Shown here: positions 1,548-61,462 of the stretch, in pieces | Position numbering within the stretch: position 1 is the first letter of the stretch | How the letters are laid out: each line of letters opens with the position of its first letter | From: Lacunisphaera sp. | GTDB taxonomy: Bacteria; Verrucomicrobiota; Verrucomicrobiia; Opitutales; Opitutaceae | Reading direction: 5' to 3' | Assembly (NCBI GenBank): GCA_009695095.1 | Contig: SIBQ01000001.1 | Coordinates: forward strand, 126,501 to 190,500 | DNA length: 64,000 nt | Made by a program: the position numbers and the translations under genes | Notes under the pieces: model-generated | The model's input: only the letters and a program-made list of their open reading frames with translations | Database searches by the model: none | What the model was told of the DNA's origin: nothing

Positions 1548-2612
1548 ATGAACTTACTTGTCACAGGAGGCTGCGGTTTCATCGGGAGCAATTTCATCCG
1601 GCAGCGGCTGACCGAAAAAGGCTCGGCGCTCACCAAGCTCGTCAACCTCGACGCGCTCACCTACGCAGGCAACCCGGCGAACCTCGCCGACCTGGCGGGC
1701 GACAGGCGTTATGTCTTTGTGCATGGCGACATCGGCGACACCGCGCTCGTCGCCCGGCTGCTCGCCGAGCACGCGATTGGCGCCGTCGTCAACTTTGCCG
1801 CCGAGTCACACGTGGACCGCTCGATCGATTCGCCCGAGCCTTTCATCCAGACCAATGTCACCGGCACGCTCCGCCTGCTCAATTGCGCCAAGCAACACTG
1901 GAGCAAGCTCGCTGAGCCGAAAAAGTCCGCCTTCCGCTTCCTGCATGTCTCGACCGACGAGGTCTACGGCTCGCTGGCTCCCGGCGCCCCGGCCTTCACC
2001 GAGGAGCACAACTTCGAGCCCAACAGCCCCTACGCCGCCTCGAAAGCCGCGAGCGACCACCTCGTCCGCGCCTACCAGCACACCTACGGCCTGCCGACGC
2101 TGACGACCAACTGCTCGAACAACTACGGCCCCTACCACTTCCCGGAAAAACTCATCCCGCTGGTCATCCTCAACGCCCTCGAGGGCAAGCCGCTGCCGGT
2201 CTACGGCGACGGCATGCAGGTCCGCGACTGGCTCTATGTCAAGGATCACACCGCCGCTATCTGGCTCGTGCTGCACCAGGGCCACACCGGCGAGACCTAC
2301 AACATCGGCGGCCTGAACGAGCAGCCCAACATCGCCATCGTGAGAATGATCTGCGAGTTGCTCGACCGGAAGTCGCCGCGCACCGACGGCCGGAGCTACG
2401 CCGGCCAGATCACCCACGTCACCGACCGTCCCGGCCACGACCGCCGCTACGCGATCGACTGCACCAAGATCAACCGCGAGTTCGGCTGGAAGCCGGTTGA
2501 GTCCTTCGCCACCGGCATCGAAAAGACCGTGGATTGGTATTTGCAGAACCGTGCCTGGGCCGCGGAGCTGACCGCGAAGTATGCACGCCAGCGCCTCGGG
2601 GTTAAGGTTTAA
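1548..2612 (+). CDS. rmlB: dTDP-glucose 4,6-dehydratase
   Basis: A 354-residue extended SDR of normal length for RmlB. It converts dTDP-D-glucose to dTDP-4-keto-6-deoxyglucose in the cytoplasm. Visible signatures are the NAD-binding GGCGFIG at 7-13, FAAESHVDRSI near 85, the STDEVYG catalytic Thr-Asp-Glu triad near 135, and YAASK near 162. The NNYGPYHFPEKLIPL and VRDWLYV stretches are characteristic of RmlB rather than general epimerases. It is followed by rmlA after a 56-bp gap filled by 7-bp repeats, and preceded by a reductase gene, so the three probably form one dTDP-deoxysugar module. Confidence 0.95.
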   Translation: MNLLVTGGCGFIGSNFIRQRLTEKGSALTKLVNLDALTYAGNPANLADLAGDRRYVFVHGDIGDTALVARLLAEHAIGAVVNFAAESHVDRSIDSPEPFIQTNVTGTLRLLNCAKQHWSKLAEPKKSAFRFLHVSTDEVYGSLAPGAPAFTEEHNFEPNSPYAASKAASDHLVRAYQHTYGLPTLTTNCSNNYGPYHFPEKLIPLVILNALEGKPLPVYGDGMQVRDWLYVKDHTAAIWLVLHQGHTGETYNIGGLNEQPNIAIVRMICELLDRKSPRTDGRSYAGQITHVTDRPGHDRRYAIDCTKINREFGWKPVESFATGIEKTVDWYLQNRAWAAELTAKYARQRLGVKV

Positions 2613-2668
2613 GCGGGATAAGGTTTAAGTTGTAAGCCGGGGACTTCTGCTGCTTAAAACTTAAACCC
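2601..2668. repeat. Heptamer tract between rmlB and rmlA
   Basis: The last bases of rmlB and the whole gap up to the rmlA ATG read as consecutive degenerate 7-mers of the TTTAAGG type (for example GTTAAGG, TTTAAGC, GGTTTAA, GTTGTAA), then their complement (GCTTAAA, ACTTAAA). The two halves can pair into an imperfect hairpin. A near-identical tract lies between glyA and the yjbR-like gene (33066-33140). Confidence 0.75.
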
Positions 2669-3544
2669 ATGTCCCGCAAAGGCATCATCCTCGCCGGTGG
2701 CTCCGGCACCCGGCTCTACCCCCTCACCATCGCGGTGAGCAAGCAGCTCATGCCGGTCTACGACAAGCCGATGATCTATTATCCGCTGTCGGTGCTGATG
2801 CTCGCCGGCATCCGCGAGGCGCTGGTCATCTCCACCCCGCAGGACCTGCCGCTGTTCAAGCTTCTCCTCGGTGATGGCGCGCAATTCGGGCTCAAGCTCA
2901 GTCACGCTGTGCAACCCAAACCCGAGGGCCTGGCGCAGGCGTTCCACATCGCCGGCGACACCGGTTTTCTGAAGGGCGAGCCCTCCGCCCTGGTGCTGGG
3001 CGACAATCTTTTCTATGGTGCCGAGTTCGTGAAATCCCTGGAAGGCGCCGCCGCCCGCCCCACCGGCGCCACCATCTTCGGCTACCACGTCGCCAATCCC
3101 AGCGTCTACGGCGTGGTCGAATTCGCGCAGGACGGCAAGGTGCTCTCCCTCGAGGAAAAACCCAAGCAGCCCAAGTCCAGCTACGCCATTCCCGGGCTTT
3201 ATTTCTACGATCAGGAGGTCGTGGCGCTGGCGCGCAGCCTTAAGCCTTCCGCCCGCGGCGAACTTGAGATCACCGATCTCAACCGGCTCTACCTCGAAAA
3301 GGGCCGGTTGCACGTCAAGCTCCTTGGCCGCGGCACGGCCTGGCTCGACACCGGCACGCACGACTCGCTGATCGAGGCCGCCCAGTTTGTCCATGTCCTC
3401 GAGAACCGCACCGGCCTGAAGATCGCCTGCCTCGAGGAAATCGCTTACAAGAAGGGCTGGATCGACCGCGCCGGGATGGAAGCTAATATCAAGAAGCTCG
3501 GCAAGTCCGCTTACGGCGAATACCTCCGCCGGCTGCTCGCCTGA
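2669..3544 (+). CDS. rmlA: Glucose-1-phosphate thymidylyltransferase
   Basis: A 291-residue nucleotidyltransferase that makes dTDP-glucose from dTTP and glucose-1-phosphate, supplying RmlB. The N-terminal pyrophosphorylase motif [11 protein letters not shown] lies at residues 10-20, followed by [17 protein letters not shown], the standard RmlA signature. LGDNLFYG near 110 carries the metal- and sugar-binding Asp. The [16 protein letters not shown] motif near 225 is also typical. Length matches the family. The ATG follows a TTTAAG-type heptamer tract with no Shine-Dalgarno. Together with rmlB and the RmlD-like gene it forms a dTDP-sugar supply unit for the glycosyltransferases around it. Confidence 0.95.
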
Positions 3545-3595
3545 GATTCTGCGTGCGGCGCGCCGGCCGGCCGGTTACATCATGAACCGCCCGGC

Positions 3596-5532: not shown

Positions 5533-5544
5533 TGCGGCAGCCTG

Positions 5545-7541: not shown

Positions 7542-7544
7542 CGA

Positions 7545-13255: not shown

Positions 13256-13285
13256 GGGGCGCCACACCCCGCCTTTTTCATTGGT

Positions 13286-13306
13286 GGCGGGATCAGCGAT
13301 CCCGCC
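13286..13306. terminator. 21-bp palindrome in convergent gap (family A), putative bidirectional terminator
   Basis: Perfect 9-bp arms, GGCGGGATC and its complement, separated by the 3-nt loop AGC. It fills the 60-bp gap between the convergent genes ending at 13255 and 13316. Two further copies lie in the convergent gap at 34851-34900. No long T-run follows, so termination is inferred from position and stem stability. Confidence 0.6.
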
Positions 13307-13315
13307 CTACAAAGC

Positions 13316-14368: not shown

Positions 14369-14377
14369 GCGGCTAGT

Positions 14378-14560
14378 TTGACCACGAATGGCACGGATGA
14401 ACACGGATTGAATGACCACTGAAAAACATCGAACCAGATTTCACAGGAGGTCGCAGAGGAGGCAGAGCAAGGCCCCCCTGGGCTGATTCTCTGCGGTCTC
14501 TGCGATCCCCTGTAAAAGTATTTATCCGTGTCCATCTGTATAATCTGTGGTTAAATTCCT
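14378..14560. repeat. Nested inverted heptamer tracts
   Basis: The outer arms (ACGAATGGCACGGATGAAC near 14380 and the complement-like CCGTGTCCATCTGTATAATC near 14525) and inner arms (CAGAGGAGGCAGAG near 14453 and GATTCTCTGCGGTCTCTGCG near 14482) form a nested imperfect palindrome. Each arm is built of 7-bp units. The element occupies the gap between two minus-strand glycosyltransferase genes. No ORF of interest lies in it. Confidence 0.7.
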
Positions 14561-14584
14561 CTTCGTGTCGTTGAGATGTCGTGG

Positions 14585-17654: not shown

Positions 17655-17755
17655 GGTCAGAGATAATAAGTAGGGCGAGTTCTCCGAACGAGCCGCGGCC
17701 GAGTTGATGGCCACAGAAGGCGCAGAAAATGCAAAAGGAGATATACCTCGCTGCC

Positions 17756-17851
17756 TGTCATCCTGAGCAAAGCGAAGGATCCATCCGTTGCCGATATTCC
17801 GCTGAATGAAGATGTCGCTACGCTCGGAACTTCGCTGTGCCCAGAATGACA
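17756..17851. repeat. Interspersed inverted repeat, family B, copy 1
   Basis: The left arm TGTCATCCTGAGCAAAGCGA and a right arm ending CCAGAATGACA are separated by about 55 bases. It lies upstream of the MGDG-like gene. A short heptamer tract (CCACAGA, AGGCGCA, GAAAATG) precedes it at 17711-17742. Related copies lie at 22894, 38271, 47053 and 57512. Confidence 0.75.
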
Positions 17852-17910
17852 AAATGAGATCATTTTTGCGTCTATTGTATTTGTTGGTGGCAAAATGGTT
17901 TGGAGATGAT

Positions 17911-22858: not shown

Positions 22859-22893
22859 GGCGGATTCTCTCCCGGACATTTCTTCGCAGGTTT

Positions 22894-22922
22894 TGTCATT
22901 CTGAGCGAAGCGAAGAATGACA
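22894..22922. terminator. Family B hairpin, copy 2, in convergent gap; putative bidirectional terminator
   Basis: Perfect 9-bp arms TGTCATTCT and AGAATGACA around an 11-nt loop. It lies between the convergent thioesterase and queG genes and is the shortest, cleanest copy of the family. T-residues at 22891-22894 precede it on the plus strand, giving a poly-A/T flank suited to termination on the minus strand. Confidence 0.55.
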
Positions 22923-22946
22923 GTATCGATGACTAAAGGATGGTGA

Positions 22947-29290: not shown

Positions 29291-30577
29291 ATGGCACTTC
29301 CATCCTCCGTCCTCGTCGTCGGCTCCGGCGGGCGCGAGCACGCTCTCATCAAGTCGCTCGCGGCCTCGTCCGGCCAACCCCGCCTGCTGTGCGCCCCGGG
29401 TAACGCCGGGATCGCGTCGGAAGCCGCCTGCTTCCCCGTCGCGGTCGACGACCTCGCCGGGCTCGTTGCGCTCGCGCAGCGCGAGCAGGTCGGGTTCGTC
29501 GTCGTCGGACCCGAGGTGCCGCTCTCGCTCGGCCTAGCGGACAAACTCATCGCCGCCGGCATTCCGGTTTACGGGCCCAAGGCCGACGGCGCCCGGCTCG
29601 AAGCCTCCAAGATTTTCACGAAGGAAATTTTGCTGAAACATAAAATTCCCACCGCGCCGGCTGGAATTTTCAGCGATGTCGCCCCCGCCCTCGCCTATCT
29701 GAAAAAACGCAGCGCACCGATTGTCATCAAGGCTGACGGACTCGCCGCCGGTAAGGGTGTCGTGGTTGCACAATCGTTGGCCGAGGCGGAGACCGCCGTG
29801 CGCGACATGCTCGGCGGAAAATTCGGCGCGAGCGGCAAACAGATCCTCATCGAGGACTGCTTGTTCGGCGAAGAGACCTCGCTGCTCGTCATCGTGTCGG
29901 GCCGCGACTACGTCATCCTGCCGACAGCCCAGGATCACAAGCGCATCGGCGACGGCGACACCGGCCCGAACACCGGCGGCATGGGCGCCTACTCGCCCGC
30001 CGAGGTCGTCACGCCCGCGCTGCTCCAGCGCATTGACCGCGAAATCGTCCGCCCTTCCGTCGACGCGATCGCCGTCGAGGGCATCGAATTCCGTGGCACG
30101 CTCTTCATCGGGATCATGCTCACGCCGGGCGGCCCAAGTGTGCTCGAATACAACACCCGCTTCGGCGATCCCGAGACGCAGGTCGTGCTGCCGCGCCTGT
30201 CCACCGACCTGCTCGCGCTCCTCTGGGCCGCCACCCGGGGTGAATTGCGCGGCTTCAAGCCGGACGTGAAGCCCGATTACGCGGTGTGCGTGGTTGTTGC
30301 CGCCAAGGGATATCCGGACAGTTACGCCAAGAATGACGTGATCACTCTTCCTCCCACCTCCTCCCTCCCGCCTCAGACCTTCATCTACCATGCCGGCACG
30401 GCTAGGAACGCCGCGGGACAGATCGTGACCAACGGCGGCCGCGTGCTCGGCGTCACCGCCCTTGGGGCTACCTTGCGCGAGGCCACCGCCCGCGCTTATG
30501 CCGCTTGCGACCAGCTGCAATGCGCGTCCAAATACTTTCGCCGCGACATCGGCGCCCGCCAGCTCAACCGCTTATGA
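29291..30577 (+). CDS. purD: Phosphoribosylamine-glycine ligase
   Basis: A 428-residue ATP-grasp enzyme of normal length for the second step of purine synthesis. [15 protein letters not shown] at the start, [13 protein letters not shown] near 76, [13 protein letters not shown] near 145 and [25 protein letters not shown] near 215 are diagnostic. [16 protein letters not shown] near 285 completes the metal site. A heptamer tract inserts Pro/Ser-rich residues ([11 protein letters not shown]) between TLPP and YHAGTA near residue 355, where other PurD proteins are shorter. Its stop TGA overlaps the ATG of the next gene. Confidence 0.95.
30345..30379. repeat. Heptamer tract inside purD
   Basis: Five 7-mers of the TCCTCCC/TCCCGCC type lie in frame and encode the [11 protein letters not shown] insertion in the C-terminal domain. 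The 35-bp array is not a multiple of 3, so the flanks must compensate. Confidence 0.6.
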
Positions 30578-31213
30578 GAAAACCTCTCTCCCTGTTCTCA
30601 ATTCTCTGTGCTCTGTCCTCTGTTTCGGCCACCGCCACCGAGCTGACCGACCTGGGCCAGGGTTTGTCCTATCTGCGCGTCCATTCCCTCGGTGACTCGG
30701 AGAAAGCCCTGCGCTTCGCCGTGCCCGGGGCGGGTGCTCTCGTGCTCGACCTGCGCCATGCCACGACAAGCGACGATGATGTCGAAGCCTTGAAGGTCGC
30801 GCTATCCGGCCAGCACCCCGTTGTTCATTTTGGTCAGCCCTGCGACACCCTCAGTGATCGTAACGGCGATCGCCCAGACGTCCGCACTGACATTGGGCGC
30901 ACCGGGCTCGGCGCCCGCGCCCAACGTCGTGGTGCAGACTGCCGCCGCAGCCGACCGACGCGCTTATGACGCGCTGGAAACCGGCACCCCTCTCGCCACA
31001 CTCATCTCCGGCAAAGTTGAGAAGGATCGCTTTGATGAGGCGACGCTCGTGAAGGAGTTCAAGAACGGCAACCCCGATGCCTCGCCCCCGCCTCTGCCCG
31101 ACCCCACGGCACTCAAGTCCGCGGCGGCCCCGGAGAAGCTGGTTCCGCTGACCGACCGTGTGCTGCAGCGTGCCGTGCATCTGCACAGGGCCGGGCTGGT
31201 TCTGCGTCGCTGA
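30574..31213 (+). pseudogene. Frameshifted gene for a small exported protein
   Basis: ATG 30574 opens a frame with a signal peptide (LSLFSILCALSSVSATA) and continues to about residue 80 (DVEALKVALSGQHP). There it loses sense and later stops at 30969. The frame one base over resumes at 30821 with LFILVSPATPSVIV and runs to a TGA at 31213, giving ALTLGAPGSAPAPNVVVQT and a charged C-terminus. Joining the two near 30818 yields about 213 residues with one smooth composition, so one inserted base (perhaps in CCCC) is the likely cause. A sequencing error is possible. Its signal peptide is encoded by a heptamer tract. No family is recognised. Confidence 0.65.
30584..30627. repeat. Heptamer tract encoding a signal peptide
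   Basis: Units such as TCTGTGC, TCTGTCC, TCTGTTT with 7-bp spacing form the hydrophobic core of the exported protein starting at 30574. Confidence 0.65.
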
Positions 31214-31776: not shown

Positions 31777-31806
31777 ACTTCCTCTCACTCCCGGCTCCCT
31801 GCTCCC

Positions 31807-33075
31807 ATGTCGCTTAACGCCTCCCCGCTCTCGCAACTTGATCCCGCCATTTACGCCGCCATCGCCGGCGAATTCGCCCGGCAGCAGCATCACCTCGAGC
31901 TGATCGCCTCGGAAAATTTCACCTACCCCGCCGTCCTCGAGGCGCAGGGCAGCGTGCTGACCAACAAATACGCCGAGGGCTACCCGGGGAAACGTTGGTA
32001 TGGCGGCTGCGAATTTGTCGACCAGGTCGAGAACCTGGCGATCGCGCGCGCCAAGCAGCTCTTCAACGCCGAGCACGCCAACGTCCAGCCTCATTCCGGC
32101 TCCCAGGCCAATTTCGCCGTCTACACCGCCATGCTCTCGCCGGGCGACAAGATCCTCGGCATGAACCTCAGCCACGGCGGCCACCTCACGCACGGCAACC
32201 CGGCCAATTTTTCCGGCAAGCTATATAACTTCTGCCAATACGGCGTGCACGAGGCCGACGGCCGCATTGACTACGACGAGCTCGCCGCCACCGCCGCGCG
32301 CGAGCAGCCGAAGATGATCACCGTCGGCGCCTCCGCCTACTCGCGCATCATCGACTTCGCGAAAATGGGCGAGATCGCCCGCTCGGCCGGCGCCCTGCTT
32401 TTCGCCGACATTGCGCACATCGCCGGGCTCGTCGCGTCGGGCCACCACCCCTCGCCCTTCCCGCACGCCGACTTTGTCACCACCACCACGCACAAGACGC
32501 TGCGCGGCCCGCGCGGCGGCCTCACGATGTGCAAGGCGGCGCACGCCAAGCTCATTGATTCCGCGGTCTTCCCCGGCGGCCAGGGCGGTCCGCTCATGCA
32601 CATCATCGCCGCCAAGGCCGTGTGCTTCGTCGAGTGCCTCAAGCCGGAGTTCAAGGCCTACAGCGCCCAGGTGATCAAGAATGCGCAGGCGCTCGCCGCC
32701 GGCATGACGCAGCGCGGCCTCAAGATCGTCTCCGGCGGGACGGACAACCACCTGATGCTCGTCGACCTCCGCGCCAAGCTGCCGAATCTCACCGGCAAGG
32801 TCGCGCAGGAGACGCTCGATCGCGCCAACATCACCTGCAACAAGAACGCCGTGCCGTTCGAGACGCGCTCGCCTTTCCAGGCCTCCGGCATCCGGCTCGG
32901 CTCGCCCGCGATGACGACCCGCGGGATGAAGGAAGCCGAGATGGAGGAAATCGCCGGGCTGATTGACGGCGTGCTGGTCGCCATCGGCACCCCGACCGAG
33001 GCCGCCGTTCTCGGCGCCACCAAGGAGAAGGTCATCAAGCTGACGGGCAAATTCCCCCTGCCGTATAAGTTGTAA
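31807..33075 (+). CDS. glyA: Serine hydroxymethyltransferase
   Basis: A 422-residue PLP enzyme that interconverts serine and glycine while loading one-carbon units on tetrahydrofolate. [39 protein letters not shown] near 24-60 is the universal SHMT signature. [11 protein letters not shown] near 95 binds folate/PLP, and [11 protein letters not shown] near 230 contains the PLP lysine. The C-terminal [19 protein letters not shown] stretch matches too. It lies 8 kb from a threonine-aldolase-like gene, so glycine supply may be linked. The start follows a CTCCCGG/CTCCCTG heptamer tract. Confidence 0.96.
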
Positions 33076-33140
33076 GGTTTAAGTTTTAAGCACCCGACAT
33101 TCCGGCTTAAACTTTATCCCCTTAAACCTTAAAGCTTGTC
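33066..33140. repeat. Heptamer tract between glyA and yjbR-like gene
   Basis: GGTTTAA, GTTTTAA units then CTTAAAC, CCTTAAA, CCTTAAA form an inverted pair around ACCCGACATTCC. The glyA stop lies at its edge. It is very similar to the tract before rmlA. Confidence 0.75.
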
Positions 33141-34844: not shown

Positions 34845-34850
34845 TTGTAG

Positions 34851-34871
34851 GGCGGGATCGCTGATCCCGCC
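34851..34871. terminator. 21-bp palindrome, family A, copy 2
   Basis: Perfect 9-bp arms GGCGGGATC and GATCCCGCC around GCT, seven bases after the stop of the aspartic protease gene. With copy 3 it fills the convergent gap to rsmB. Confidence 0.6.
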
Positions 34872-34879
34872 TATCTCGC

Positions 34880-34900
34880 GGCGGGGTCAGCGACCCCGCC
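34880..34900. terminator. 21-bp palindrome, family A, copy 3
   Basis: Arms GGCGGGGTC and GACCCCGCC around AGC. It differs from copies 1 and 2 by a compensating G/C pair, so pairing is kept while the sequence drifts. Confidence 0.6.
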
Positions 34901-34909
34901 CTGCAGCTT

Positions 34910-38154: not shown

Positions 38155-38454
38155 GGTGGCACCTGGCCTCCGGACGGGCTTTCTTCATTCTTCTCAAGCC
38201 GCGCCCCCCGCGCAGCTTGTTATTTTACCCGCGGATAACACGGATGACCGCGGATGAGACACCCACCACCTGTCATTCTGAGCAACGCGAATAATCCAGG
38301 AGGATGCTTGCCGGCGCGCGTCATTCTGGATGCTTTGCTTCACTCAGCATGACGGCATTGACGATTTGGCCTTGATCCGTATCCATCCGCGGGAAATCAG
38401 CCTTCCTTCCCCGCGCTTGTCATCCGCGGCGTTTCCCCTCAGTGGTGTCCCGTC
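38155..38454. other. Repeat-filled intergenic region
   Basis: 300 bases between greA and the ArsR-methyltransferase gene. It holds a heptamer tract (CGCGGAT, AACACGG, ATGACCG at 38230-38262), family B copy 3 (38271-38353) and a shorter complementary tract (GATCCGTATCCATCCGCGG near 38375). No gene is seen. Confidence 0.65.
38271..38353. repeat. Interspersed inverted repeat, family B, copy 3
   Basis: Left arm TGTCATTCTGAGCAACGCGA and right arm ending CTCAGCATGACGG, with an internal GCGTCATTCTGGATGC. Longer and more degenerate than the copy at 22894. Confidence 0.7.
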
Positions 38455-44690: not shown

Positions 44691-45575
44691 CTAGGCCAGG
44701 CGCGCCTCCTGTACGAACGCCGCCGGCCCCCAGCACTCGCGAATGCGCGCCACAAGCGGGGCCGTCACGAAATTGTCACCAAGCAGCGCAAAGCAGGCGC
44801 TGCCGCTGCCGCTCATGCGCGCCGCAACGCCAAACTCGTTCCGCAGCTTTCCGAGCAGCACCGGCAGGGCGGTGTATTTTTCAAAGGCTGCGCCCTCCAG
44901 GTTGTTAAATAAAATCTCCTCGGCCGGTGCCTGGCCTCGCAACCATGCGGCGATCTTTTGCTCAGCTTGGTCCGCGGGCAGATAGTCGGTCTTGCGCAAC
45001 GCCATCCGGCCATAGGCCCACACTGTGCTGATGGCGAAACCGGGCTTGAACAGCAGCACCCGCCGGCCATGCAAGCGCGACCCCTCTGCCAGGACCTCGA
45101 GATGCTCGCCGCGCCCGCGCACGATGACCGGCGCGTTTTTTAGAAAGAGCGCGCAATCCGAGCCGAGTGTCGTCGCGATTTCGAACAGCTTTGCCTCCGC
45201 CAGTTTCGCGCCAGAAACTTGGTTTAACGCGCGCAGTGTCGCCACCGCGTTGCTGCTGCCGCCGCCGAGTCCCGCGCCCAAGGGGATGCGTTTCGTCAGC
45301 TTGAAACTCATCCCGCCCTTCCAGCCGGTCGCAGCCGCAAAGGCATGCGCCGCCTTCCACACCAGGTTGCTCCCGTCCACCGGCACCGCCGGGTCACTGC
45401 ATGCCAGGCTGAATTGGCTCCCGGCTCCCGGCTCCCTGCTCCCTGCTTCCAACTCATCGCCGAAGTCCAGCGGGGCGACGACCGACACCAGATCATGGAA
45501 ACCGTCGGCCCGCCGCCCAGTGACAGCGAGATAAAGATTAACTTTGGCCGGCGAAAACACGGTGACGGCGTTCAC
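44691..45575 (-). CDS. ispE: 4-diphosphocytidyl-2-C-methyl-D-erythritol kinase
   Basis: A 294-residue GHMP kinase for the fourth step of the MEP isoprenoid pathway, from GTG 45575 (VNAVTVFSPAKVNLYL). The SPAKVNLYL signature is at residues 8-16; PLGAGLGGGSSNAVATL near 98-114 is the ATP-binding glycine loop; SGSGSACFALLG near 265 is the closing motif. A GTG at 45617 would add 14 residues. A heptamer tract inserts AGSREPGAGSQ near residue 52 where most IspE proteins are shorter. It is divergent from pyrF, with starts 60 bases apart. Confidence 0.92.
   Translation of the reverse strand: MNAVTVFSPAKVNLYLAVTGRRADGFHDLVSVVAPLDFGDELEAGSREPGAGSQFSLACSDPAVPVDGSNLVWKAAHAFAAATGWKGGMSFKLTKRIPLGAGLGGGSSNAVATLRALNQVSGAKLAEAKLFEIATTLGSDCALFLKNAPVIVRGRGEHLEVLAEGSRLHGRRVLLFKPGFAISTVWAYGRMALRKTDYLPADQAEQKIAAWLRGQAPAEEILFNNLEGAAFEKYTALPVLLGKLRNEFGVAARMSGSGSACFALLGDNFVTAPLVARIRECWGPAAFVQEARLA
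45417..45451. repeat. Heptamer tract inside ispE
   Basis: Five perfect-to-near-perfect 7-mers (GCTCCCG twice, GCTCCCT twice, GCTTCCA) in the coding strand encode, on the minus strand, part of EAGSREPGAGSQ. The same units flank ispD (46327-46360) and glyA. Confidence 0.7.
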
Positions 45576-45634: not shown

Positions 45635-46330
45635 ATGGCTTGCGACCTAATTTTGGCCCTCGATGTCCCCACGCGCGAAGCCGCCGCGCCCATCCTCCGC
45701 CAGTTGCGCGGCCAGCTGCGCTGGGTAAAGGTCGGCCTGCAGCTGTTCACCGCCTACGGTCCCAACTATGTGCGCGAGGTCGCAGGGATGGGCTTTAAGG
45801 TCTTTCTCGACCTGAAGCTGCACGACATTCCGAACACTGTCGCCAAGGCCGTCGAGTCACTCGCGCCGCTGCCCATCTCGATGCTCACCCTGCACACCGC
45901 GGGCGGGGCCAAGATGATGCGTGCCGCCCGCGCGGCGCAGCAGCAGCACATCCCCAACCTGCTGCTGCTTGGCGTCACGGTCCTCACCTCGATGGATTCC
46001 GTCGGACTCAGCGAAATCGGCGTCGCCGCCTCGTCCGCTGACCAGGTTGCCCGCCTCGGGCAGCTCGCCGCCGACTCCGGCCTGCGCGGACTCGTCTGCT
46101 CGCCGCTCGAGGTGGCGATGCTGCGCTCGCAACTGCCCGCGGACATGCAGCTCATCACGCCCGGCATCCGCCCCACCAGCGAGACGGGTGACGACCAGAA
46201 GCGCGTCATGACACCCGCCGACTCCGCCCGCGCCGGCTCCACCTACCTTGTGGTCGGCCGCCCGATCCTGCAGGCCGCCGACCCGGCCACAGCCGCCCGG
46301 GCCATCCTGGCGGAGCTGGCCGGCTCCTAG
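45635..46330 (+). CDS. pyrF: Orotidine 5'-phosphate decarboxylase
   Basis: A 231-residue TIM-barrel enzyme for the last step of UMP synthesis. LILALDVPTREAA near 5 supplies the first Asp; KVGLQLF near 33 the second Lys; FLDLKLHDIPNTVAKAV near 56-72 is the DxKxxD catalytic motif; VTPGIRP (ITPGIRP) near 180 and VVGRPILQA near 210 bind the phosphate. All catalytic residues are present. It lies upstream of ispD on the same strand, separated by a heptamer tract. Confidence 0.95.
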   Translation: MACDLILALDVPTREAAAPILRQLRGQLRWVKVGLQLFTAYGPNYVREVAGMGFKVFLDLKLHDIPNTVAKAVESLAPLPISMLTLHTAGGAKMMRAARAAQQQHIPNLLLLGVTVLTSMDSVGLSEIGVAASSADQVARLGQLAADSGLRGLVCSPLEVAMLRSQLPADMQLITPGIRPTSETGDDQKRVMTPADSARAGSTYLVVGRPILQAADPATAARAILAELAGS

Positions 46331-46360
46331 CTCCATGCTCCCTGCTCCCTGCTTCAGTCC

Positions 46361-47062: not shown

Positions 47063-47136
47063 GCGCAGTGAAGAACCCATGCCTGGCATCCCTTCACCGT
47101 CTCATTCCTGGATCTTTCGCTGCGCTCAGGATGACA
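47053..47136. repeat. Interspersed inverted repeat, family B, copy 4
   Basis: Left arm GTCATTCTGAGCGCAGTGAA and right arm CTTTCGCTGCGCTCAGGATG lie about 40 bases apart, immediately after the ispD stop. The arms pair nearly perfectly. A heptamer tract (CTGTATTCTTTTTCGTGTC) follows up to the ispF start. Confidence 0.75.
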
Positions 47137-47139
47137 CGC

Positions 47140-47197
47140 TTCGGTTGTCTGTATTCTTTTTCGTGTCTTTCGTATGTTTTGTGGTGACTCTCCCCTC
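47140..47197. repeat. Heptamer tract before ispF
   Basis: Units GTTGTCT, GTATTCT, TTTTCGT, GTCTTTC, GTATGTT, TTGTGGT end directly at the ispF ATG. A related tract occurs before the DUF721 gene (61334-61462). Confidence 0.7.
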
Positions 47198-49328: not shown

Positions 49329-50997
49329 TTTCGCAGGGCTGCCCCTCGCCGGCAGGCCGCGGGGCGCTCCGGGCACGGCGACAAGCGCCGGCCCTACATT
49401 TTCCGTTTTCTGTCTTCTGTCCTCTGTCCTCCGGCAGTCCACCGTAGCCTTGTGTGTAGGCGGATGTCTTCTGTCCGCCGGCTGTCCGCGGCGGGAGGCA
49501 GTCGTGCCCGCCGGCCAGGTGCTCCGCCTTAGCCAGCGCAACGAGCCGGCCACGCTCGACCCGCACCTCGCCACCCTGCCGGACGAATTTTTCATTATAC
49601 GCGCACTAAGCGAGGGCCTGCTCACGCCGGGGCCCGACGGCGGCGCGCCGCAACCCGCAGTCGCCGAGCGCTGGGAAATCTCGCCTGATGGCCGCACCTA
49701 CACATTCCATCTTCGCCCCGGGGCGAAATGGTCCAATGGTGACCCGGTGACGGCCGGCGATTTTGTCTACTCCATCCAGCGCGCACTGTCCCCTGCGCTG
49801 GCCGCGCCCAAGGTCGCGCTGTTTTTCCCACTGCGAAACGCGGAAGCCTTCTCTACCGGAAGGCTGCCGGATTATTCCGCCGTCGGCGTGCTCGCGCCCG
49901 GCGACCACCGGCTCGAGCTCACGCTGGAGGAACCCACCGCGGACTTCCTGGCAATCGTGGCCAGCGGCCCGTGGATTCCGGTGCATCGGGCCACGATTGA
50001 GCAATTCGGCCGCAGGGACCAGCGCGACACTGGGTGGACCCGCGCGGGTAATTTCATCGGCAACGGACCGTTCACGCTCACGGCCTGGCGACCGAACCAG
50101 GAGATCATCGTGCAGCGCAACCCGGCCTACTGGGATGCCGCCGAGGTGAGACTGCCGGAAATCCGCTTTCTGGCCTTCGACAACGGCGACGCCGAGGAAC
50201 GCGCCTTCCGCGCCGGCCAGCTGGACGTAACCCTGTCGGTGCCGTTCACCAAAATCCTCGCTTATCGCGCGGCGCAACCGCCGGTGCTGCACCAGGTGCT
50301 GTTGCACGAGACGCGCTACCTCGCCCTGAACATGACCCGCCCGCCGCTGGACAATCCCAAGGTGCGCTACGCCCTCGCCCTGGCGCTCAACCGCGCTGAC
50401 CTGGTGGAAAAAGTACTGCTCGGCGGGCAGCAGCCCGCCCTCAACTTCATCCCCCCCGGCTTGGGCGGCTACACGCCCGCCACCCGCCTCACGGAGGACG
50501 CGGCCGAAGCCCGGCGGTTGCTGGGCGAAGCGGGATTCCCCGAGGGCCGCGGATTCCCCAAACTGGAAATCACCACCTGGGTCGGCACGCCCGTGCTCGA
50601 GGCCATCCAGCAGATGTGGCGGCGCGAACTCGGCATCGAGGTCACCCTCGCCCAGCGCGAGGCGCGCACCCACCTCGCCGCGCTTGCTGCGGGCGACTAC
50701 GCCATCGCGCTGGTTACGGCTATTCCGGACTACGACGGCGCCTCGGATCTTTTCATCGACCTGCGGAGCGGCGACCCGGGCAACTATCCGCACTGGCGCA
50801 ATGTGGAATTCGACCGGCTCGTGGCCGTCGCGGCCCGCCACGCCGCCTACCAGCAGGCGGAAAAAGTGCTGCTCGATGACCTGCCGCTCATCCCGCTCTA
50901 TTTCAATTCGCAGAATTTCCTCGTGCAACCCCGGGTCAAACACTGGCAGACGGACCGGATTTGGACGCGTTTCTACCGGAAAGTTACTGTCGAATGA
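49309..50997 (+). CDS. Peptide ABC transporter substrate-binding lipoprotein (OppA-type), copy 2
   Basis: A 562-residue SBP family 5 protein whose ATG lies inside the end of copy 1. The hydrophobic leader (FSVFCLLSSVL, then VALCVGGCLLSAGC) is unusually long and is partly encoded by a heptamer tract; the second lipobox, LLSAGC near residue 59, is the better one. SQRNEPATLDPHLATLPDEFF, VAERWEISPDGRTYTFHLRPGAKWSNGDP and IGNGPFTLTAWRPNQEIIVQRNPAYWD follow. If the N-terminal 30 residues are dropped, the protein matches the other paralogues in length. Substrate specificity is unknown. Confidence 0.85.
   Translation: MSGWKINFAGLPLAGRPRGAPGTATSAGPTFSVFCLLSSVLRQSTVALCVGGCLLSAGCPRREAVVPAGQVLRLSQRNEPATLDPHLATLPDEFFIIRALSEGLLTPGPDGGAPQPAVAERWEISPDGRTYTFHLRPGAKWSNGDPVTAGDFVYSIQRALSPALAAPKVALFFPLRNAEAFSTGRLPDYSAVGVLAPGDHRLELTLEEPTADFLAIVASGPWIPVHRATIEQFGRRDQRDTGWTRAGNFIGNGPFTLTAWRPNQEIIVQRNPAYWDAAEVRLPEIRFLAFDNGDAEERAFRAGQLDVTLSVPFTKILAYRAAQPPVLHQVLLHETRYLALNMTRPPLDNPKVRYALALALNRADLVEKVLLGGQQPALNFIPPGLGGYTPATRLTEDAAEARRLLGEAGFPEGRGFPKLEITTWVGTPVLEAIQQMWRRELGIEVTLAQREARTHLAALAAGDYAIALVTAIPDYDGASDLFIDLRSGDPGNYPHWRNVEFDRLVAVAARHAAYQQAEKVLLDDLPLIPLYFNSQNFLVQPRVKHWQTDRIWTRFYRKVTVE
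49398..49434. repeat. Heptamer tract encoding a lipoprotein leader
   Basis: TTTTCCG, TTTTCTG, TCTTCTG, TCCTCTG, TCCTCCG are five consecutive 7-mers. They encode FSVFCLLSSVLRQ in the leader of the OppA-type protein. Confidence 0.7.
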
Positions 50998-53061: not shown

Positions 53062-53072
53062 GCGATCCGGCC

Positions 53073-56447: not shown

Positions 56448-56544
56448 CTAGCCGTTCCGTCCTCTGTTCTCTGCTTGCCTCGCCATAGTCCCCCAATGCG
56501 GGCCGAAGGCGGTTCCCTCCGTTCTCTGTCTCCTGTAACCCACC
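56448..56544. repeat. Heptamer tracts before oppB
   Basis: Two 7-mer tracts, one near 56455-56485 (CCGTCCT, CTGTTCT, CTGCTTG) and one at 56508-56540 (CGTTCTC, TGTCTCC), run to the oppB ATG. No Shine-Dalgarno is seen. Confidence 0.65.
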
Positions 56545-57462: not shown

Positions 57463-57511
57463 AGAACTTTTCCCACGGATGAACACGGAGAGAGAACCAA
57501 TCCAAGAGATT

Positions 57512-57592
57512 TGTCATTCTGAACGTAGCGAAGAATCCATCTGCCTGTATCTCCACCCTGTCCCCGGATCCTTCGCTACGCTCAGGATGACA
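57512..57592. repeat. Interspersed inverted repeat, family B, copy 5
   Basis: Left arm TGTCATTCTGAACGTAGCGA and right arm CTTCGCTACGCTCAGGATGA around a 40-nt centre, in the oppB-oppC gap. Heptamer-like tracts (CACGGAT, GAACACG and AATCCGT) flank both sides. The element sits inside a likely operon, so it does not necessarily terminate. Confidence 0.75.
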
Positions 57593-57640
57593 CGCCACGG
57601 CAATCCATCCGGGCCCATCGGTGCAATCCGTGACTAAAAA

Positions 57641-58546
57641 ATGTCTTCCGGCACACCACAGCTCACCGCTGCTCCCCAAACGCCTGCCGAAACCGAACCC
57701 GGTTCCTCGCTCTGGCGCGACGCCTGGCACCGGCTGCAGAAGAACAAACTGGCCGTATTCGGCGGTGGCTTGCTGCTCGTCCTCACGGTGCTCTGTATCG
57801 TCGGCCCGTGGTTTCTCCGTTTTTCCTATCAGGAGCAAAACCTCGACCTCGGCGCCACGCCGCCCGGCGCGCAACACTGGCTGGGCACTGACACTCTCGG
57901 CCGCGATCTCCTAGTCCGCCTGCTCTACGGCGGCCGCATCTCACTCGGGGTCGGACTCTGCGCCACGTTCGTCGCCCTCACCATTGGCGTCGCCTATGGC
58001 GCCGTCGCCGGCTATATCGGCGGCAAGGCCGACGCTGTCATGATGCGGCTGGTGGACATCATCTACGCGCTGCCCTTCACCATCTTCGTCATCCTGCTGA
58101 TGGTGTTCTTCGGCCGGAACATCTTCCTGCTTTTCGTCGCCATCGGCGCCGTGGAGTGGCTGACCATGGCGCGCATCGTCCGCGGCCAGATCATGTCGCT
58201 GAAGAAGATGGAGTTCATCGAAGCCGCCCGGTCGCTTGGTCTGAGCAATCAGCGCATCATTTTCCGTCACCTGATTCCCAATGTGCTCGGGCCCATCATC
58301 GTCTACACCACGCTCACCATCCCCGCCGTCATGCTGCTCGAGGCCTTCCTCAGCTTCCTCGGCCTCGGCGTCCAGCCACCCATGAGCTCGTGGGGCACAC
58401 TCATCAAGGACGGCGCCGAGAAGATGGAGGAATTCTCGTGGCTGCTCATCTTCCCCGGCACCCTTTTTTCCCTGACGCTTTTCTCGCTCAACTTCCTCGG
58501 CGACGGGTTAAGGGATGCGCTCGACGTGAGGACCGCGAAGGATTAA
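57641..58546 (+). CDS. oppC: Peptide ABC transporter permease OppC
   Basis: A 301-residue inner-membrane protein. WHRLQKNKLAVFGGGLLLVLTVLCIVGPWF is the N-terminal OppC_N pattern, LGTDTLGRDLLVRLLYGGRISLGVG near 85-110 the standard periplasmic loop, and FIEAARSLGLSNQRIIFRHLIPN near 190 the EAA cytoplasmic loop. LSFLGLGVQPPMSSWG near 240 is characteristic of DppC/OppC. With OppB it forms the translocation pore for peptides captured by the lipoproteins upstream. Confidence 0.93.
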   Translation: MSSGTPQLTAAPQTPAETEPGSSLWRDAWHRLQKNKLAVFGGGLLLVLTVLCIVGPWFLRFSYQEQNLDLGATPPGAQHWLGTDTLGRDLLVRLLYGGRISLGVGLCATFVALTIGVAYGAVAGYIGGKADAVMMRLVDIIYALPFTIFVILLMVFFGRNIFLLFVAIGAVEWLTMARIVRGQIMSLKKMEFIEAARSLGLSNQRIIFRHLIPNVLGPIIVYTTLTIPAVMLLEAFLSFLGLGVQPPMSSWGTLIKDGAEKMEEFSWLLIFPGTLFSLTLFSLNFLGDGLRDALDVRTAKD

Positions 58547-58557
58547 CAAGGCGATTC

Positions 58558-59565
58558 ATGAATTGTCCCCCGCATCGCCGATCGCACCTCCTCGTCAGGG
58601 CAGTGCTGGCCGCGCGACTCCTCGGGTGTGTGCTGTCCGTCTGGCTGACGGCGGTATCGCTGCCCGCCAGCGAGCCGGGGCAGATTGTTGCCCAGCAAAA
58701 AGTGCGCGAGGGGTTCATTGCGGTCACAGGAGGCAAGGTCTGGTTCCGGATCATCGGCGCCGACAAGCCGGGCATTCCACTGCTGACCCTCCATGGCGGT
58801 CCGGGGGTCCCGTCCGATGCACTGGAACTGCTGGCGCCCCTGACCGACGAGCGCCCGCTGGTGGTTTACGATCAGCTCGGTTCGGGACGGTCGGACGTGC
58901 CGGAAGGCAACTCGCTCTACCGCGTCGAGCGCTACGTCGAGGAACTTGCCCAAGTGCGGGCGGCCCTCGGACTCAAACGCGTGCACCTGATGGGTCACTC
59001 GTGGGGCACGATGCTGGGACTGGAATATATGCTCACCAAGCCGGCGGGGGTGGAGAGCCTCATTTTCGCCGGCCCGTGCCTGAGCGTGAAGCGTTGGGTG
59101 GATGACCAAAAATCCTACCTGGCCCAGATGCCGCAAAGCGTGCGCGATGCCGTCGCGAAAAATGAAGCCGCCGGCACGACCACCTCGCCCGAATACCTGG
59201 CGGCCGTCGGCGCCTACTACCGGCAGCACCTGTTGCGGATGGACGAGTGGCCCCCGATCATGAAGCGCGACCGGTTTGGCGATGCCGTCTATCAATACAT
59301 GTGGGGGCCGAGCGAGTTCACCTGCACGGGAACCCTCGGGACCTACGAGCGGGCCGACCGGCTCGCTGAAATCCGGGTGCCGACGCTCTATACCTGCGGC
59401 GAGTTTGACGAAGCCACTCCTGCGGCCACCGCCTTCTACCAAGGCCAGACCCCGGGCGCGAAGATCAAGGTCTTCGCCGGCGCATCCCACATGACCTACG
59501 TCGAACAGCCCGAGGCGTATTGCGCCGCGGTGCGCGAATTCCTGCACGGGGTGGAAAAACACTAA
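58558..59565 (+). CDS. Proline iminopeptidase-like alpha/beta hydrolase, exported
   Basis: A 335-residue serine hydrolase from ATG 58558. A hydrophobic N-terminal stretch (LLVRAVLAARLLGCVLSVWL) ends near residue 35 and suggests export. LLTLHGGPGVPSD near 80 is the oxyanion-hole motif, HLMGHSWGTMLGLEYML near 140 holds the nucleophilic serine, EFDEATPAATAF near 285 the acidic residue, and ASHMTYVEQPE near 312 the histidine. This order and the HGGPG motif match prolyl iminopeptidases. It would remove N-terminal proline from peptides, complementing the M28 aminopeptidase upstream. Twelve bases separate it from oppC. Confidence 0.85.
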   Translation: MNCPPHRRSHLLVRAVLAARLLGCVLSVWLTAVSLPASEPGQIVAQQKVREGFIAVTGGKVWFRIIGADKPGIPLLTLHGGPGVPSDALELLAPLTDERPLVVYDQLGSGRSDVPEGNSLYRVERYVEELAQVRAALGLKRVHLMGHSWGTMLGLEYMLTKPAGVESLIFAGPCLSVKRWVDDQKSYLAQMPQSVRDAVAKNEAAGTTTSPEYLAAVGAYYRQHLLRMDEWPPIMKRDRFGDAVYQYMWGPSEFTCTGTLGTYERADRLAEIRVPTLYTCGEFDEATPAATAFYQGQTPGAKIKVFAGASHMTYVEQPEAYCAAVREFLHGVEKH

Positions 59566-59582
59566 CCGCACTTCGCTCGCCC

Positions 59583-61325
59583 ATGTTCCGTCGCTTCCGT
59601 CCCTATTTCCGCTACCTCCTGGAAAATCGCGGCCCGCTCTCCGCCGCGATCTTCTACGGCCTGCTCTTCGGTGTGACTAGCGGCCTCGGTCTGCCGGCGC
59701 TCGTTAAATACGTCTTCCCGCCGATCTTCGACCGCCAAGACCCGCCGCTGGCCTCATCCACGATCTGGCTCATCGCCGCCAGCGTGCCCGTACTCTTTCT
59801 GCTCCGCGCCGTCACCGGCTACCTCAACAGCTATTACGTGTCGCTGACCGGCGTCCGCATACTGGAGGCGGTTCGGCTCGATTATTTCCGCAAGCTCCAG
59901 TGGCTGCCGCTCTCGTTCCTGCAGCGCAAGGCCAGTGGCGACCTCATCTCACGCGGTCTGGCTGACACCGCGCAGTTGCAATTCACCCTCTCCCTAGTCG
60001 CCAACGACGGGGTCAAGCAGCCTATGCAGCTGCTCGGTGCCCTGGGCTTCCTCCTCTGGCAGGCCTTCACCACCGACGGTGCGCTGCTCGTGCTGGTCTG
60101 CCTCGCCGTCGTGCCGCTCACAGTCCTGCCCGTGCATTATGTCGGCAAGAAAATCGTCAAGCGCGCCCTGGAGGTGCAAAGCCAGCTTGGCGACATGTCA
60201 TCACAATTCGTCGAGAATCTCGCTGCCGCCCGCGAGGTCCGCGCCTTCGGTCTCGAACAGCGCGAGATCGAGCGCTTCAGCCAGGCCACCAGGGGGCTGG
60301 TCGTCGCGCAGATGAAGACGGTGAAATATGCGCAGGCCCTCACCCCGGCCATTGAGATCCTGTCCGGCGCCGGCATCGCCGCCTCCCTGGTCTTTGCCTA
60401 TGACGCCGGGGTCAAATGGGACACTTTTTTTGCCATTATTACCGCGCTCTACCTCTGCTACGAGCCGATCAAGAAGATCGGCTACCTCAACACCGAGCTG
60501 AACCGCGGCACGGCTTCGCTCGATCGCCTGGAGCACGTGCTCCACGAGCCGGTGACCATCACCGACCCGGCCCAGCCGAAGCCCGTCACGCGCCTGCGCG
60601 GCAACATCGCGTTCACCGACGTCACCTTCTCCTACGGTGAGGCGCCTGCTCTCTCAGGTGTCAACGCCGCGATTCCCGCCGGCACCGTCTGCGCGCTGGT
60701 CGGCCCGAGCGGTGCGGGCAAGAGCACCTTCGCCAACCTCGTGCCGCGCTTCTTCGAGGTCGGGGCCGGGGCCGTCACCATCGACGGCATCGACGTTCGC
60801 GCCATGCGGCTCGCCGACCTGCGCAACAACATCGCCCTCGTCTCGCAGGAGCCCGTGCTCTTCAACGACACCATCTACAACAACCTCGCCCTCGGCAAGG
60901 CGGCCGCCTCGCGCGACGAGATCATGGCGGCGGCCCGCAGCGCCCACGCCGACGAGTTCATCTCCAAGCTGCCGCAGGGCCACGACACCATCGTCGGCGA
61001 ACGCGGCGCGCTGCTCTCCGGCGGCCAGAAGCAACGCATCGCCATCGCCCGCGCCTTCCTCCGCCACGCCCCCATTCTCATTCTCGACGAGGCCACCAGT
61101 GCACTCGACTCCGACAGCGAGGCGGCGGTGCAGGACGCGCTGCGCAAACTCGTCGTTGGTAAGACCGTGCTTATCATCGCCCACCGATTCAGCACCATCC
61201 GCGACGCCTCGATGATCCTCGTGTTCGACCAGGGCCGGATCGTCGCCCAAGGCAACCACGCCTCACTCTACGCCGGCAACGCGCTCTACAAGTCGCTCTA
61301 CGACCGGCAGCAGGGCGCTGTTTGA
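59583..61325 (+). CDS. MsbA-like ABC exporter (membrane domain plus ATPase)
   Basis: A 580-residue half-transporter from ATG 59583. Residues 20-315 contain six predicted helices with the coupling segments LEAVRLDYFRKLQWLPLSFLQRKASGDLISR near 100-130 and VENLAAAREVRAFGLEQREIERF near 215. The ATPase domain has Walker A GPSGAGKST at 374-382, Q-loop VSQEPVLFND near 420, signature LLSGGQKQR near 477-485 and Walker B ILILDEATSALDSDSE near 499. It would flip a lipid or glycolipid, like MsbA, and might serve the surface glycolipid made by the earlier loci. No accessory gene accompanies it. Confidence 0.9.
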   Translation: MFRRFRPYFRYLLENRGPLSAAIFYGLLFGVTSGLGLPALVKYVFPPIFDRQDPPLASSTIWLIAASVPVLFLLRAVTGYLNSYYVSLTGVRILEAVRLDYFRKLQWLPLSFLQRKASGDLISRGLADTAQLQFTLSLVANDGVKQPMQLLGALGFLLWQAFTTDGALLVLVCLAVVPLTVLPVHYVGKKIVKRALEVQSQLGDMSSQFVENLAAAREVRAFGLEQREIERFSQATRGLVVAQMKTVKYAQALTPAIEILSGAGIAASLVFAYDAGVKWDTFFAIITALYLCYEPIKKIGYLNTELNRGTASLDRLEHVLHEPVTITDPAQPKPVTRLRGNIAFTDVTFSYGEAPALSGVNAAIPAGTVCALVGPSGAGKSTFANLVPRFFEVGAGAVTIDGIDVRAMRLADLRNNIALVSQEPVLFNDTIYNNLALGKAAASRDEIMAAARSAHADEFISKLPQGHDTIVGERGALLSGGQKQRIAIARAFLRHAPILILDEATSALDSDSEAAVQDALRKLVVGKTVLIIAHRFSTIRDASMILVFDQGRIVAQGNHASLYAGNALYKSLYDRQQGAV

Positions 61326-61333
61326 TCCCAACT

Positions 61334-61462
61334 GAGATTGGCCACAAAAAGTCACGAAAAGGTTTCCATGCGCCCCGATTATGTTTCGTGAGCCTATATG
61401 GCGCCTTAAAAGCTTCACTCGCCTCTTGGTTTTTGTGATTTTTTGTGGCTAAAATAACTCTT
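61334..61462. repeat. Heptamer tract before the DUF721 gene
   Basis: CCACAAA, AAGTCAC, GAAAAGG near 61343 and the opposing TTTTTGT, GATTTTT, TGTGGCT near 61430 form arms that can pair. The tract ends 13 bases before the ATG at 61463. Confidence 0.65.

What the first reader, a model, noticed from the sequence alone, without database searches (positions are those of the whole stretch)
2601..61462. Genome-wide family of 7-bp repeat tracts placed directly before start codons
At least a dozen short tracts read as runs of degenerate 7-mers, with 7-bp periodicity over 28-75 bases. Units differ between tracts (TTTAAGG type before rmlA and the yjbR-like gene, GCTCCCT before ispD and glyA, AACCTAG before purD, TTCTGTC before oppB, TTTTCGT before ispF and the DUF721 gene) but the period does not. 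Many contain two opposed arms, so they can form hairpins. Nearly all end within a few bases of an ATG. A sequence class defined by period rather than by sequence, located at translation starts in a genome without Shine-Dalgarno sites, could act in translation or mRNA folding, or be a mobile or slippage-driven element.
Basis: seen in the sequence. Interest (0 to 1): 0.85.

Follow-up and report, generated by a model that had tools for sequence, protein, structure and literature searches.

The report
Seven-base repeats framing S23 mobile elements
The odd seven-base repeats scattered between the genes of this bacterium look like the leftover ends of small jumping-gene-like elements that carry a little-understood five-part ring protein (S23), and across bacteria those ends mostly carry about five repeat units, which suggests one repeat per protein subunit.

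Summary
The period is real: in 41,972 intergenic bases of this genome, self-similarity is concentrated at 7, 14 and 21 nt (26 segments at lag 7 against 0.4 in shuffles). The ispF and dciA tracts are period 9 and 10. Adjacency to starts is mixed: weak in this genome, clear in relatives; one tract lies inside a gene. Best reading: the tracts are arms of small insertion elements built round an S23 gene (PF05635, '23S rRNA IVP', a four-helix bundle whose solved relatives are five-chain). Of 163 S23 genes from bacteria and archaea, 139 have a degenerate 7- or 8-nt array nearby and 81 have both sides, usually inverted. PIN and Y1 genes rarely or never do. Period-7 array length spikes at 4.5 units, i.e. 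five cores. Units are more alike where S23 proteins are. In the window, the rmlA-gap tract sits where two relatives carry an S23 gene, and a 6-bp gap one gene away is empty here but holds S23 elements in three relatives. Solo tracts are then relics or gene-less forms. One unit per subunit, and how they move, are inferred. Ten paper searches found no published link.

The parts
1542..1547 (.). 6-bp gap before rmlB: the site is empty here, but carries an S23-gene element in three relatives (G130/L107, G157/L111, G037/L217)
   Evidence: flank matches; sequences
2600..2637 (+). 5' arm of a solo element between rmlB and rmlA, unit TTTAAGG, five TAAG cores by eye with one 2-nt irregularity; overlaps the upstream stop codon; below the automatic threshold (score 6 per piece)
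   Evidence: orthologous site holds S23-gene elements with other units in G147 (L110) and G153 (L108)
2653..2667 (+). 3' arm (inverted) of the same solo element, ends 1 nt before the rmlA ATG
   Evidence: fold z -1.9
30595..30623 (+). solo tract, unit CTCTGTC; start of the next gene unclear
31788..31806 (+). solo tract before glyA (SHMT), unit GCTCCCT
33066..33090 (+). 5' arm of a solo element before the YjbR gene, unit TTTAAGT; overlaps the upstream stop codon
   Evidence: fold z -4.4
33106..33137 (+). 3' arm (inverted) of the same solo element; the part 33120-33137 scores 8.5 at lag 7
45416..45450 (-). five-unit GCTCCCT tract inside the coding sequence of the GHMP-kinase gene (probably ispE), residues 55-68 of the 308-aa ORF, in a loop of variable length
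46323..46353 (+). solo tract between pyrF and ispD, unit GCTCCCT; other species have other units or none at this site
49399..49431 (+). solo tract before an SBP_bac_5 gene, unit TTCTGTC
56456..56473 (+). weak tract (score 6), unit CTCTGTT, before a BPD_transp_1 permease gene
47159..47182 (+). period-9 tract in the gap before ispF (not period 7)
61343..61447 (+). period-10 inverted arms (61343-61361 and 61430-61447) before the DciA (DUF721) gene
   Evidence: (fold z -4.5)

Best explanation
The tracts are the terminal arms of small insertion elements of about 480 bp. A complete element reads: array of about five degenerate 7-nt (sometimes 8-, rarely 9- or 10-nt) units, S23 gene (PF05635), inverted array of the same unit. 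Copies that lack the gene are the solo tracts and hairpins seen in the window. Shown: the association of S23 genes with such arrays, the inverted arrangement, the five-unit length of the period-7 arrays, occupied and empty orthologous sites, and single arms of the same unit left where relatives have the whole element. Inferred: the S23 ring (five chains in the solved relatives) binds one arm with one unit per subunit, each subunit reading about four nearly fixed bases and tolerating about three variable ones, much as TRAP reads its triplets (TRAP is recalled). That would explain why the period is kept while the sequence differs from element to element. Also inferred: the element moves as a unit, prefers or survives best in sense orientation inside operons, and leaves gene-less arms. 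The enzyme that moves it is unknown.
For: Association: genus loci, lag-7 arrays on the left/right/both in 21/20/13 of 34 S23 loci (far windows 3), against 1/1/0 of 23 PIN and 0/0/0 of 21 Y1_Tnp loci. Phylum: 13/15/9 of 27 at lag 7 and 7/6/5 at lag 8. Named loci of bacteria and one archaeon: 44 up, 53 down, 39 both of 76 at lag 7 and 11/9/6 at lag 8, against 6 and 2 of 137 far windows. Together 139 of 163 S23 genes have at least one array and 81 both. Twenty further loci without a confident tblastn hit had been left out; of the 17 whose position was simple, 15 have at least one array and 9 both. Inversion: upstream array against reverse complement of the downstream one 0.81, other loci 0.50, not reversed 0.43 (79 loci); flank complementarity of 34 or more in 61 of 76 against 8 of 76 for mismatched partners. 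Five units: with a 4-nt core, 187 distinct period-7 arrays count 4:31, 5:79, 6:31, 7:9; length spike of 73 of 189 at 4.5 units; simulation shows that detection favours longer arrays. Solved relatives 2gsc (5 chains) and 2rld (chains A-E). Unit follows protein: similarity 0.47-0.49 below 50% protein identity, 0.50 at 50-60%, 0.59 at 60-70% (95 pairs), 0.69 at 70-80% (13 pairs), pairs in different contexts; none of 2000 permutations reached the observed mean for pairs of 50% or more (0.5045, maximum 0.5031). Mobility: empty and filled sites, three sites on the window's contig, two of them in the window, single arms in G159 and G160. Sense orientation: 50 of 59 against 179 of 339 background genes.
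Against: No S23 gene lies in the window, so its tracts are linked by site, period, length and arrangement, not by a gene beside them. The arms of L107 and L108 at the window's sites are read by eye and are below my threshold. G004, with no PF05635 match, still has three good tracts in 80 kb; lag-7 segments of 11 or more number 5 in 400 kb of five genomes without S23 and 8 in 400 kb of six with it. Unit similarity of solo tracts to genus S23 arms is only slightly above a reversed control (0.72 against 0.67, p 0.025, 25 tracts) and not above it for the bacteria-wide set. Core width 3 or 5 moves the count peak to 5-6 or 4-5, period-8 lengths show no spike, genus arrays count 4:12, 5:22, 6:19 of 66, and 18 of 101 bacteria-wide period-7 arrays have 8 or more units. 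A contiguous core was not shown beyond the selection effect, and arms are not complementary unit by unit beyond the shared consensus. 24 of 163 S23 genes show no array at my threshold. Period is not kept at 60-70% protein identity (95 of 152 pairs share it). No RT (PF00078) and no Y1 transposase (PF01797) was found in this genome. The 80 named loci are the best of 584 candidates for one query, and some genus loci are orthologous. Closeness of arms to starts in relatives would also suit a role in translation.
Confidence: 0.72

Rival explanations
1. Simple slippage products: 7-nt tandem repeats expand by replication slippage, and S23 genes merely tolerate or attract them.
For: Heptanucleotide repeats are the commonest long simple repeats in most genomes surveyed and slippage was proposed (earlier survey as described in PMC4679880, passages). 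Some arrays are long (18-26 units). Units differ between species at the same site.
Against: Peak at five units, inverted pairs, near restriction to periods 7 and 8, tie to one protein family but not to PIN or Y1 genes.
Confidence: 0.12
2. Domesticated operon control: S23 is a resident RNA-binding regulator and the arrays are its mRNA sites, without mobility.
For: 50 of 59 S23 genes are in sense with both neighbours. In one operon the S23 stop overlaps the next start and the 3' arm is translated as the N-terminus of the next protein. Folds of the YjbR and dciA gaps are stable (z -4.4 and -4.5), though rmlA (-1.9) and ispD (+0.8) are not.
Against: Presence and absence differ between species of one genus at several sites. 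Similar protein plus unit recurs in other contexts and another phylum: L099/L109 against the acidobacterial L264, 70-71% protein identity. Different S23 types occupy one site.
Confidence: 0.2
3. Translation-start elements.
For: In relatives 12 of 15 co-directional tracts end within 20 nt of a start against 35.7% expected, 4 of the 15 before ispD. Shine-Dalgarno sites are rare. TAACTGA repeats before starts in Beggiatoaceae were read this way (PMC4679880, abstract and passages).
Against: In this genome 4 of 15 against 15.6% expected; tracts inside coding sequence and on both sides of S23 genes; the start calls are biased towards tract ends by masking.
Confidence: 0.1

Closest known systems
23S rRNA intervening sequences (IVS) with an S23p ORF (Leptospira, Coxiella)
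   Same: S23-family ORF in a stem-bordered insert of similar size. The Coxiella IVS has three tandem GACAGAT heptamers and a fourth variant before the S23p start, varying in number between strains (PMC4990558, passages); a tract beside an S23 gene of this genome has GACAGAG units (L048 12371-12397).
   Different: Those lie in 23S rRNA; these lie between protein genes. A general five-unit inverted-arm plan and gene-less copies were not described in the passages seen.
Dispersed bacterial heptanucleotide repeats (TAACTGA of Beggiatoaceae, GGGAATC of Xanthomonas, cyanobacterial STRR, Geobacter heptanucleotide elements)
   Same: 7-nt tandem units, mostly intergenic. In Xanthomonas mostly four units and often in inverted pairs (PMC4692102, section 10); Geobacter sites with four or five units (PMC2700814, passages).
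   Different: Each report deals with one or a few unit sequences; none of the passages seen ties the repeats to S23 genes. STRR papers were seen only in a search listing; what I say of STRR is recall.
Avd of diversity-generating retroelements
   Same: Same fold (4dwl, TM about 0.8, Foldseek E 0.06-0.1). PF05635 is noted as Avd-like (PMC10053308, passages).
   Different: No reverse transcriptase found in this genome; arrays of this kind are not a known DGR part (recall).
REP elements and their RAYT transposases
   Same: Dispersed inverted repeats, some copies with a gene between them (recall).
   Different: No Y1_Tnp in this genome, and the 21 Y1 loci of the genus examined have no 7-nt arrays.

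Membership tests
S23-encoding IVS | encodes an S23/PF05635 protein | tested here: met
   gene-bearing elements only, 8 matches in this genome (7 over cut-off); not the solo tracts of the window
S23-encoding IVS | bordered by complementary sequences | tested here: met
   61 of 76 against 8 of 76 controls
S23-encoding IVS | inserted in a 23S rRNA helix | tested here: not met
   the sites looked at lie between protein genes; Rfam finds no RNA family in the window and seven S23 loci
S23-encoding IVS | excised from the RNA by RNase III | not testable with these tools
   needs RNA work
heptanucleotide simple repeats (LSSR/STRR) | tandem 7-nt units above chance | tested here: met
heptanucleotide simple repeats (LSSR/STRR) | unit number varies between strains by slippage | not tested
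   no strain pairs compared
REP/RAYT | Y1_Tnp transposase associated with the repeats | tested here: not met
DGR | reverse transcriptase | tested here: not met
   no PF00078 match in the 91.5% complete genome
DGR | Avd-like pentameric four-helix bundle | tested here: inconclusive
   fold matches 2gsc, 2rld and, weakly, 4dwl; the oligomer of these proteins was not tested

The most novel reading that the evidence does not exclude
S23 elements are a bacteria-wide class of mobile elements with protein-read ends: a pentameric ring recognises an array of five short units, one per subunit, so the ends are defined by number and spacing and not by sequence. They would be the common source of the scattered heptanucleotide repeats known from Xanthomonas, Beggiatoaceae, cyanobacteria and Geobacter, and the 23S rRNA intervening sequences would be those copies that landed in rRNA.
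Probability: 0.45. Interest if true: 0.92.

Novelty: new variant of a known kind. Interest (0 to 1): 0.84.

Why it matters
Two old puzzles, the function of S23/IVP proteins and the abundance of degenerate heptanucleotide repeats, turn out to share one address. The link gives S23 a concrete, testable ligand with a predicted stoichiometry, and explains how a repeat class can keep its period while its sequence changes. If the ends are read by count and spacing, that is an unusual way for an element to recognise itself.

Tried and rejected
Exact hairpin: units of one arm permuted pair with the other arm as well as the real order (0.840 against 0.842 mean identity, 64 loci). Density of tracts against number of S23 genes: weak and confounded by lineage. 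Solo units against S23 units: small excess in the genus, none bacteria-wide. Contiguous four-base core: not separable from the choice of the best window. RT- or RAYT-driven movement: neither enzyme found here. Known RNA family: no Rfam hit in the window and seven S23 loci. GCTCCCT as a family-wide unit: two copies in tandem in 11 of 150 genomes of the family, reversed control in 4, so one unit does not mark the class. Co-directional against other gaps in this genome: 15 of 163 against 3 of 92, p 0.12. Target-site duplication: at the permease/ATPase site both ends resemble the ATPase start in G150 and less so in G000; read by eye, not tested. At the G071 site the arm unit AAGCTNT resembles the host gene's own end, present in species without the element: target choice or a target-derived unit, unresolved. 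One search labelled sides 5' and 3' before I found that these loci are not turned to the match strand; 'up/down' mean left and right. Dropped rows: loci shorter than 3,100 bases (2 of 36 S23, 7 of 30 PIN, 9 of 30 Y1) and one of 28; 4 of 80 with short flanks (among them one of the two archaeal loci); 20 of 184 loci without a confident tblastn hit and 7 of 170 genes with short flanks (17 of the 20 were looked at). Of 112 PF05635 matches in the genus I fetched 36 loci and 40 further regions, not all. Unit names at the pyrF-ispD gap and the arms of L107 and L108 are read by eye.
Full report
1. The observation. I scored self-match at each lag with +1/-1.5 segments. In the window alone, lag 7 gives 7 segments of 9 or more. 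In the window plus 20 stretches of the same genome (449,649 bases), the 235 of 255 gaps that are up to 600 bp give 26 segments at lag 7, 16 at 14 and 10 at 21, against shuffle means of 0.4, 0.7 and 0.3, and 0 to 5 at all other lags from 4 to 30. Five of the 20 stretches had been picked for GCTCCCT hits. The period is real and dominant in this genome. Listing the tracts shows many units in one genome, some in opposed pairs, and some inside coding sequence, for example in a GDP-mannose dehydratase gene (L048 13185-13246) and in the window's GHMP-kinase gene.

2. The lead. Tracts on several stretches stood beside a small gene. One lies between the two genes of an ABC transporter and encodes an S23 protein (L041 4837-5199); another has a PF05635 match. 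The genome has 8 PF05635 matches, 7 over the cut-off, and all 8 have at least one 7-nt tract of score 9 or more within 80 bp of the match.

3. The test. In the genus, S23 loci have lag-7 arrays within 300 bp on the left in 21 and on the right in 20 of 34, on both in 13; PIN loci 1, 1 and 0 of 23; Y1 transposase loci none of 21. Twenty-seven loci from 27 genomes of the phylum give 13, 15 and 9 at lag 7 and 7, 6 and 5 at lag 8. Seventy-six of 80 named loci, from Acidobacteria, Bacteroidetes, Firmicutes, Proteobacteria, Planctomycetes, candidate phyla, one Methanophagales archaeon and others, give 44 upstream, 53 downstream and 39 both at lag 7, and 11, 9 and 6 at lag 8, while far windows give 6 and 2 of 137. 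In all, of 163 S23 genes with enough flank, 101 have an upstream, 119 a downstream, 81 both and 139 at least one array. Twenty loci had been left out for want of a confident tblastn hit; 15 of the 17 that could be placed have an array, 9 on both sides. Upstream and reverse-complemented downstream arrays share the unit (0.81 against 0.50 between loci, 79 loci). The strand of the upstream array is mostly purine-rich (187 of 227 arrays over 0.5).

4. Five units. Counting cores of four bases with at most one mismatch, 187 distinct period-7 arrays give 2:1, 3:7, 4:31, 5:79, 6:31, 7:9 and 29 with 8 or more; 38 period-8 arrays peak at 5 (13). Period-7 array length has a spike at 4.5 units (73 of 189), which is five cores and four spacers; period-8 lengths show no such spike. 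Core widths 3 and 5 move the peak by about one (52 at five and 56 at six; 61 at four and 69 at five). In the genus alone 22 of 66 have five and 19 six; in the own-genome sample 17 of 33 tracts have five. Simulated arrays show that longer ones are easier to detect. The nearest solved structures have five chains in the entry (2gsc; 2rld chains A-E), and the Xanthomonas one is described as a homopentamer (PMC4990558, passage). AlphaFold gives a confident four-helix bundle for an S23 protein of this genome (pLDDT 96), closest to 2gsc and 2rld and, with weak E-values, to Avd 4dwl. One unit per subunit is my inference from these numbers.

5. Protein and unit. In pairs of loci without similar flanks, unit similarity is 0.47 to 0.49 below 50% protein identity, 0.50 at 50-60%, 0.59 at 60-70% and 0.69 at 70-80%. 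L099 and L109 of this genus and L264 of an acidobacterium have 70-71% identical proteins, AGTGAC-type units and different contexts.

6. Sites with and without. At the ABC transporter junction, 11 of 21 genomes of the genus have the two genes 16-26 nt apart in match coordinates, and where the junction is visible stop and start overlap or nearly touch. G000, G155, G150 and G162 have an S23 element there, and G151 an S23 element of another type with other arms; G147 has a 381-nt insert whose end resembles a decayed S23 gene by eye; the rest were not resolved. In G000 the S23 stop overlaps the next start and the 3' arm is read as the N-terminus of the ATPase. At a second site five of ten genomes looked at have gene (in G154 a fragment) and arms, G159 keeps a 3' arm only, G160 a 5' arm only, both of the same unit, and G071, G093 and G151 have neither. 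At a third only G071 of ten looked at has the element. In the window, the rmlB-rmlA gap with its opposed TTTAAGG arms is where G147 and G153 carry an S23 gene with arms of other units, and the 6-bp gap on the other side of rmlB is empty here while G130, G157 and G037 carry S23 elements there; the arms of G130 are of TTTAAGG type by eye. Another solo pair of this genome (L043 4167-4283) is the site of an S23 element in G155. At the pyrF-ispD gap of 17 relatives, units read by eye differ between species (7-mers, 8-mers, a 6-mer) and four have none.

7. What the tracts do. Adjacency to starts is weak here (4 of 15 co-directional tracts, 15.6% expected) but clear in relatives (12 of 15, 35.7% expected; only 4 of the 15 before ispD), with the caution that masking biases start calls. 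This may mean that insertions at stop-start junctions are tolerated or preferred, or that arms touch translation. S23 genes are in sense with both neighbours in 50 of 59 cases against 179 of 339 background genes (some of the 59 are orthologous). No reverse transcriptase or Y1 transposase was found in this genome, so the moving enzyme is open. Arms are not complementary unit by unit beyond their shared consensus, as expected if a protein, not a stem, reads them.

8. What is known. Heptanucleotide repeats are known from several lineages: TAACTGA before starts in Beggiatoaceae, with S1, Csp and Csr proteins suggested as binders (PMC4679880, abstract and passages); GGGAATC in Xanthomonas, mostly four units and often inverted pairs (PMC4692102, section 10); Geobacter elements (PMC2700814, passages). 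The Coxiella IVS has heptamers before its S23p ORF (PMC4990558, passages). PF05635 is noted as Avd-like (PMC10053308, passages). In the listings of ten searches and the passages read I saw no paper that ties the repeats to S23 genes in general; the library holds open-licence papers only.

9. Limits. The named loci are the best hits of one query. Gene starts in the scripts are my own calls. The genome is 91.5% complete in 41 contigs. The solo tracts of the window are tied to S23 elements by site in one clear case, and by period, length and arrangement in the others. The organism's name was not tested.

Noticed in passing
window 22859-22946, 38155-38454, 47063-47197, 57463-57640, 17715-17910: Recurrent TCATTCTGAGC...GAAGAATG-type palindromes in gaps: another dispersed repeat family beside the 7-nt one (read by eye).
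   Followed up: no
window 13256-13315 and 34845-34909: GGCGGGATCAGCGATCCCGCC-type palindromes at gene ends (read by eye).
   Followed up: no
window 14369-14584, 47159-47182, 61326-61462: Arrays of period 9 and 10 (TTTCGTG, CACGGATGAA types; the first stretch by eye). An S23 locus with period-9 arms (L111) and one with period 10 (L306) suggest a related class.
   Followed up: partly
window 30505-31213: Two overlapping open frames, no Pfam match for the second; possible frameshift or mis-called start after a 7-nt tract.
   Followed up: no
L048 (G000:C26:20001-37021): Very dense in tracts: 12 in 17 kb, against 0 to 6 on the other stretches; the stretch was picked for a hit.
   Followed up: partly
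G004, L368 10898-10985: A genome of the family without any PF05635 match still has good inverted 7-nt arms.
   Followed up: no
literature, PMC10910872: A large CRISPR survey lists '23S rRNA IVP' in a figure legend on new CRISPR associations; 7-nt arms might be taken for short arrays.
   Followed up: no
L418 (G071) against L420 (G160): The arm unit AAGCTNT resembles the end of the host gene in species without the element: target choice or a target-derived unit.
   Followed up: partly
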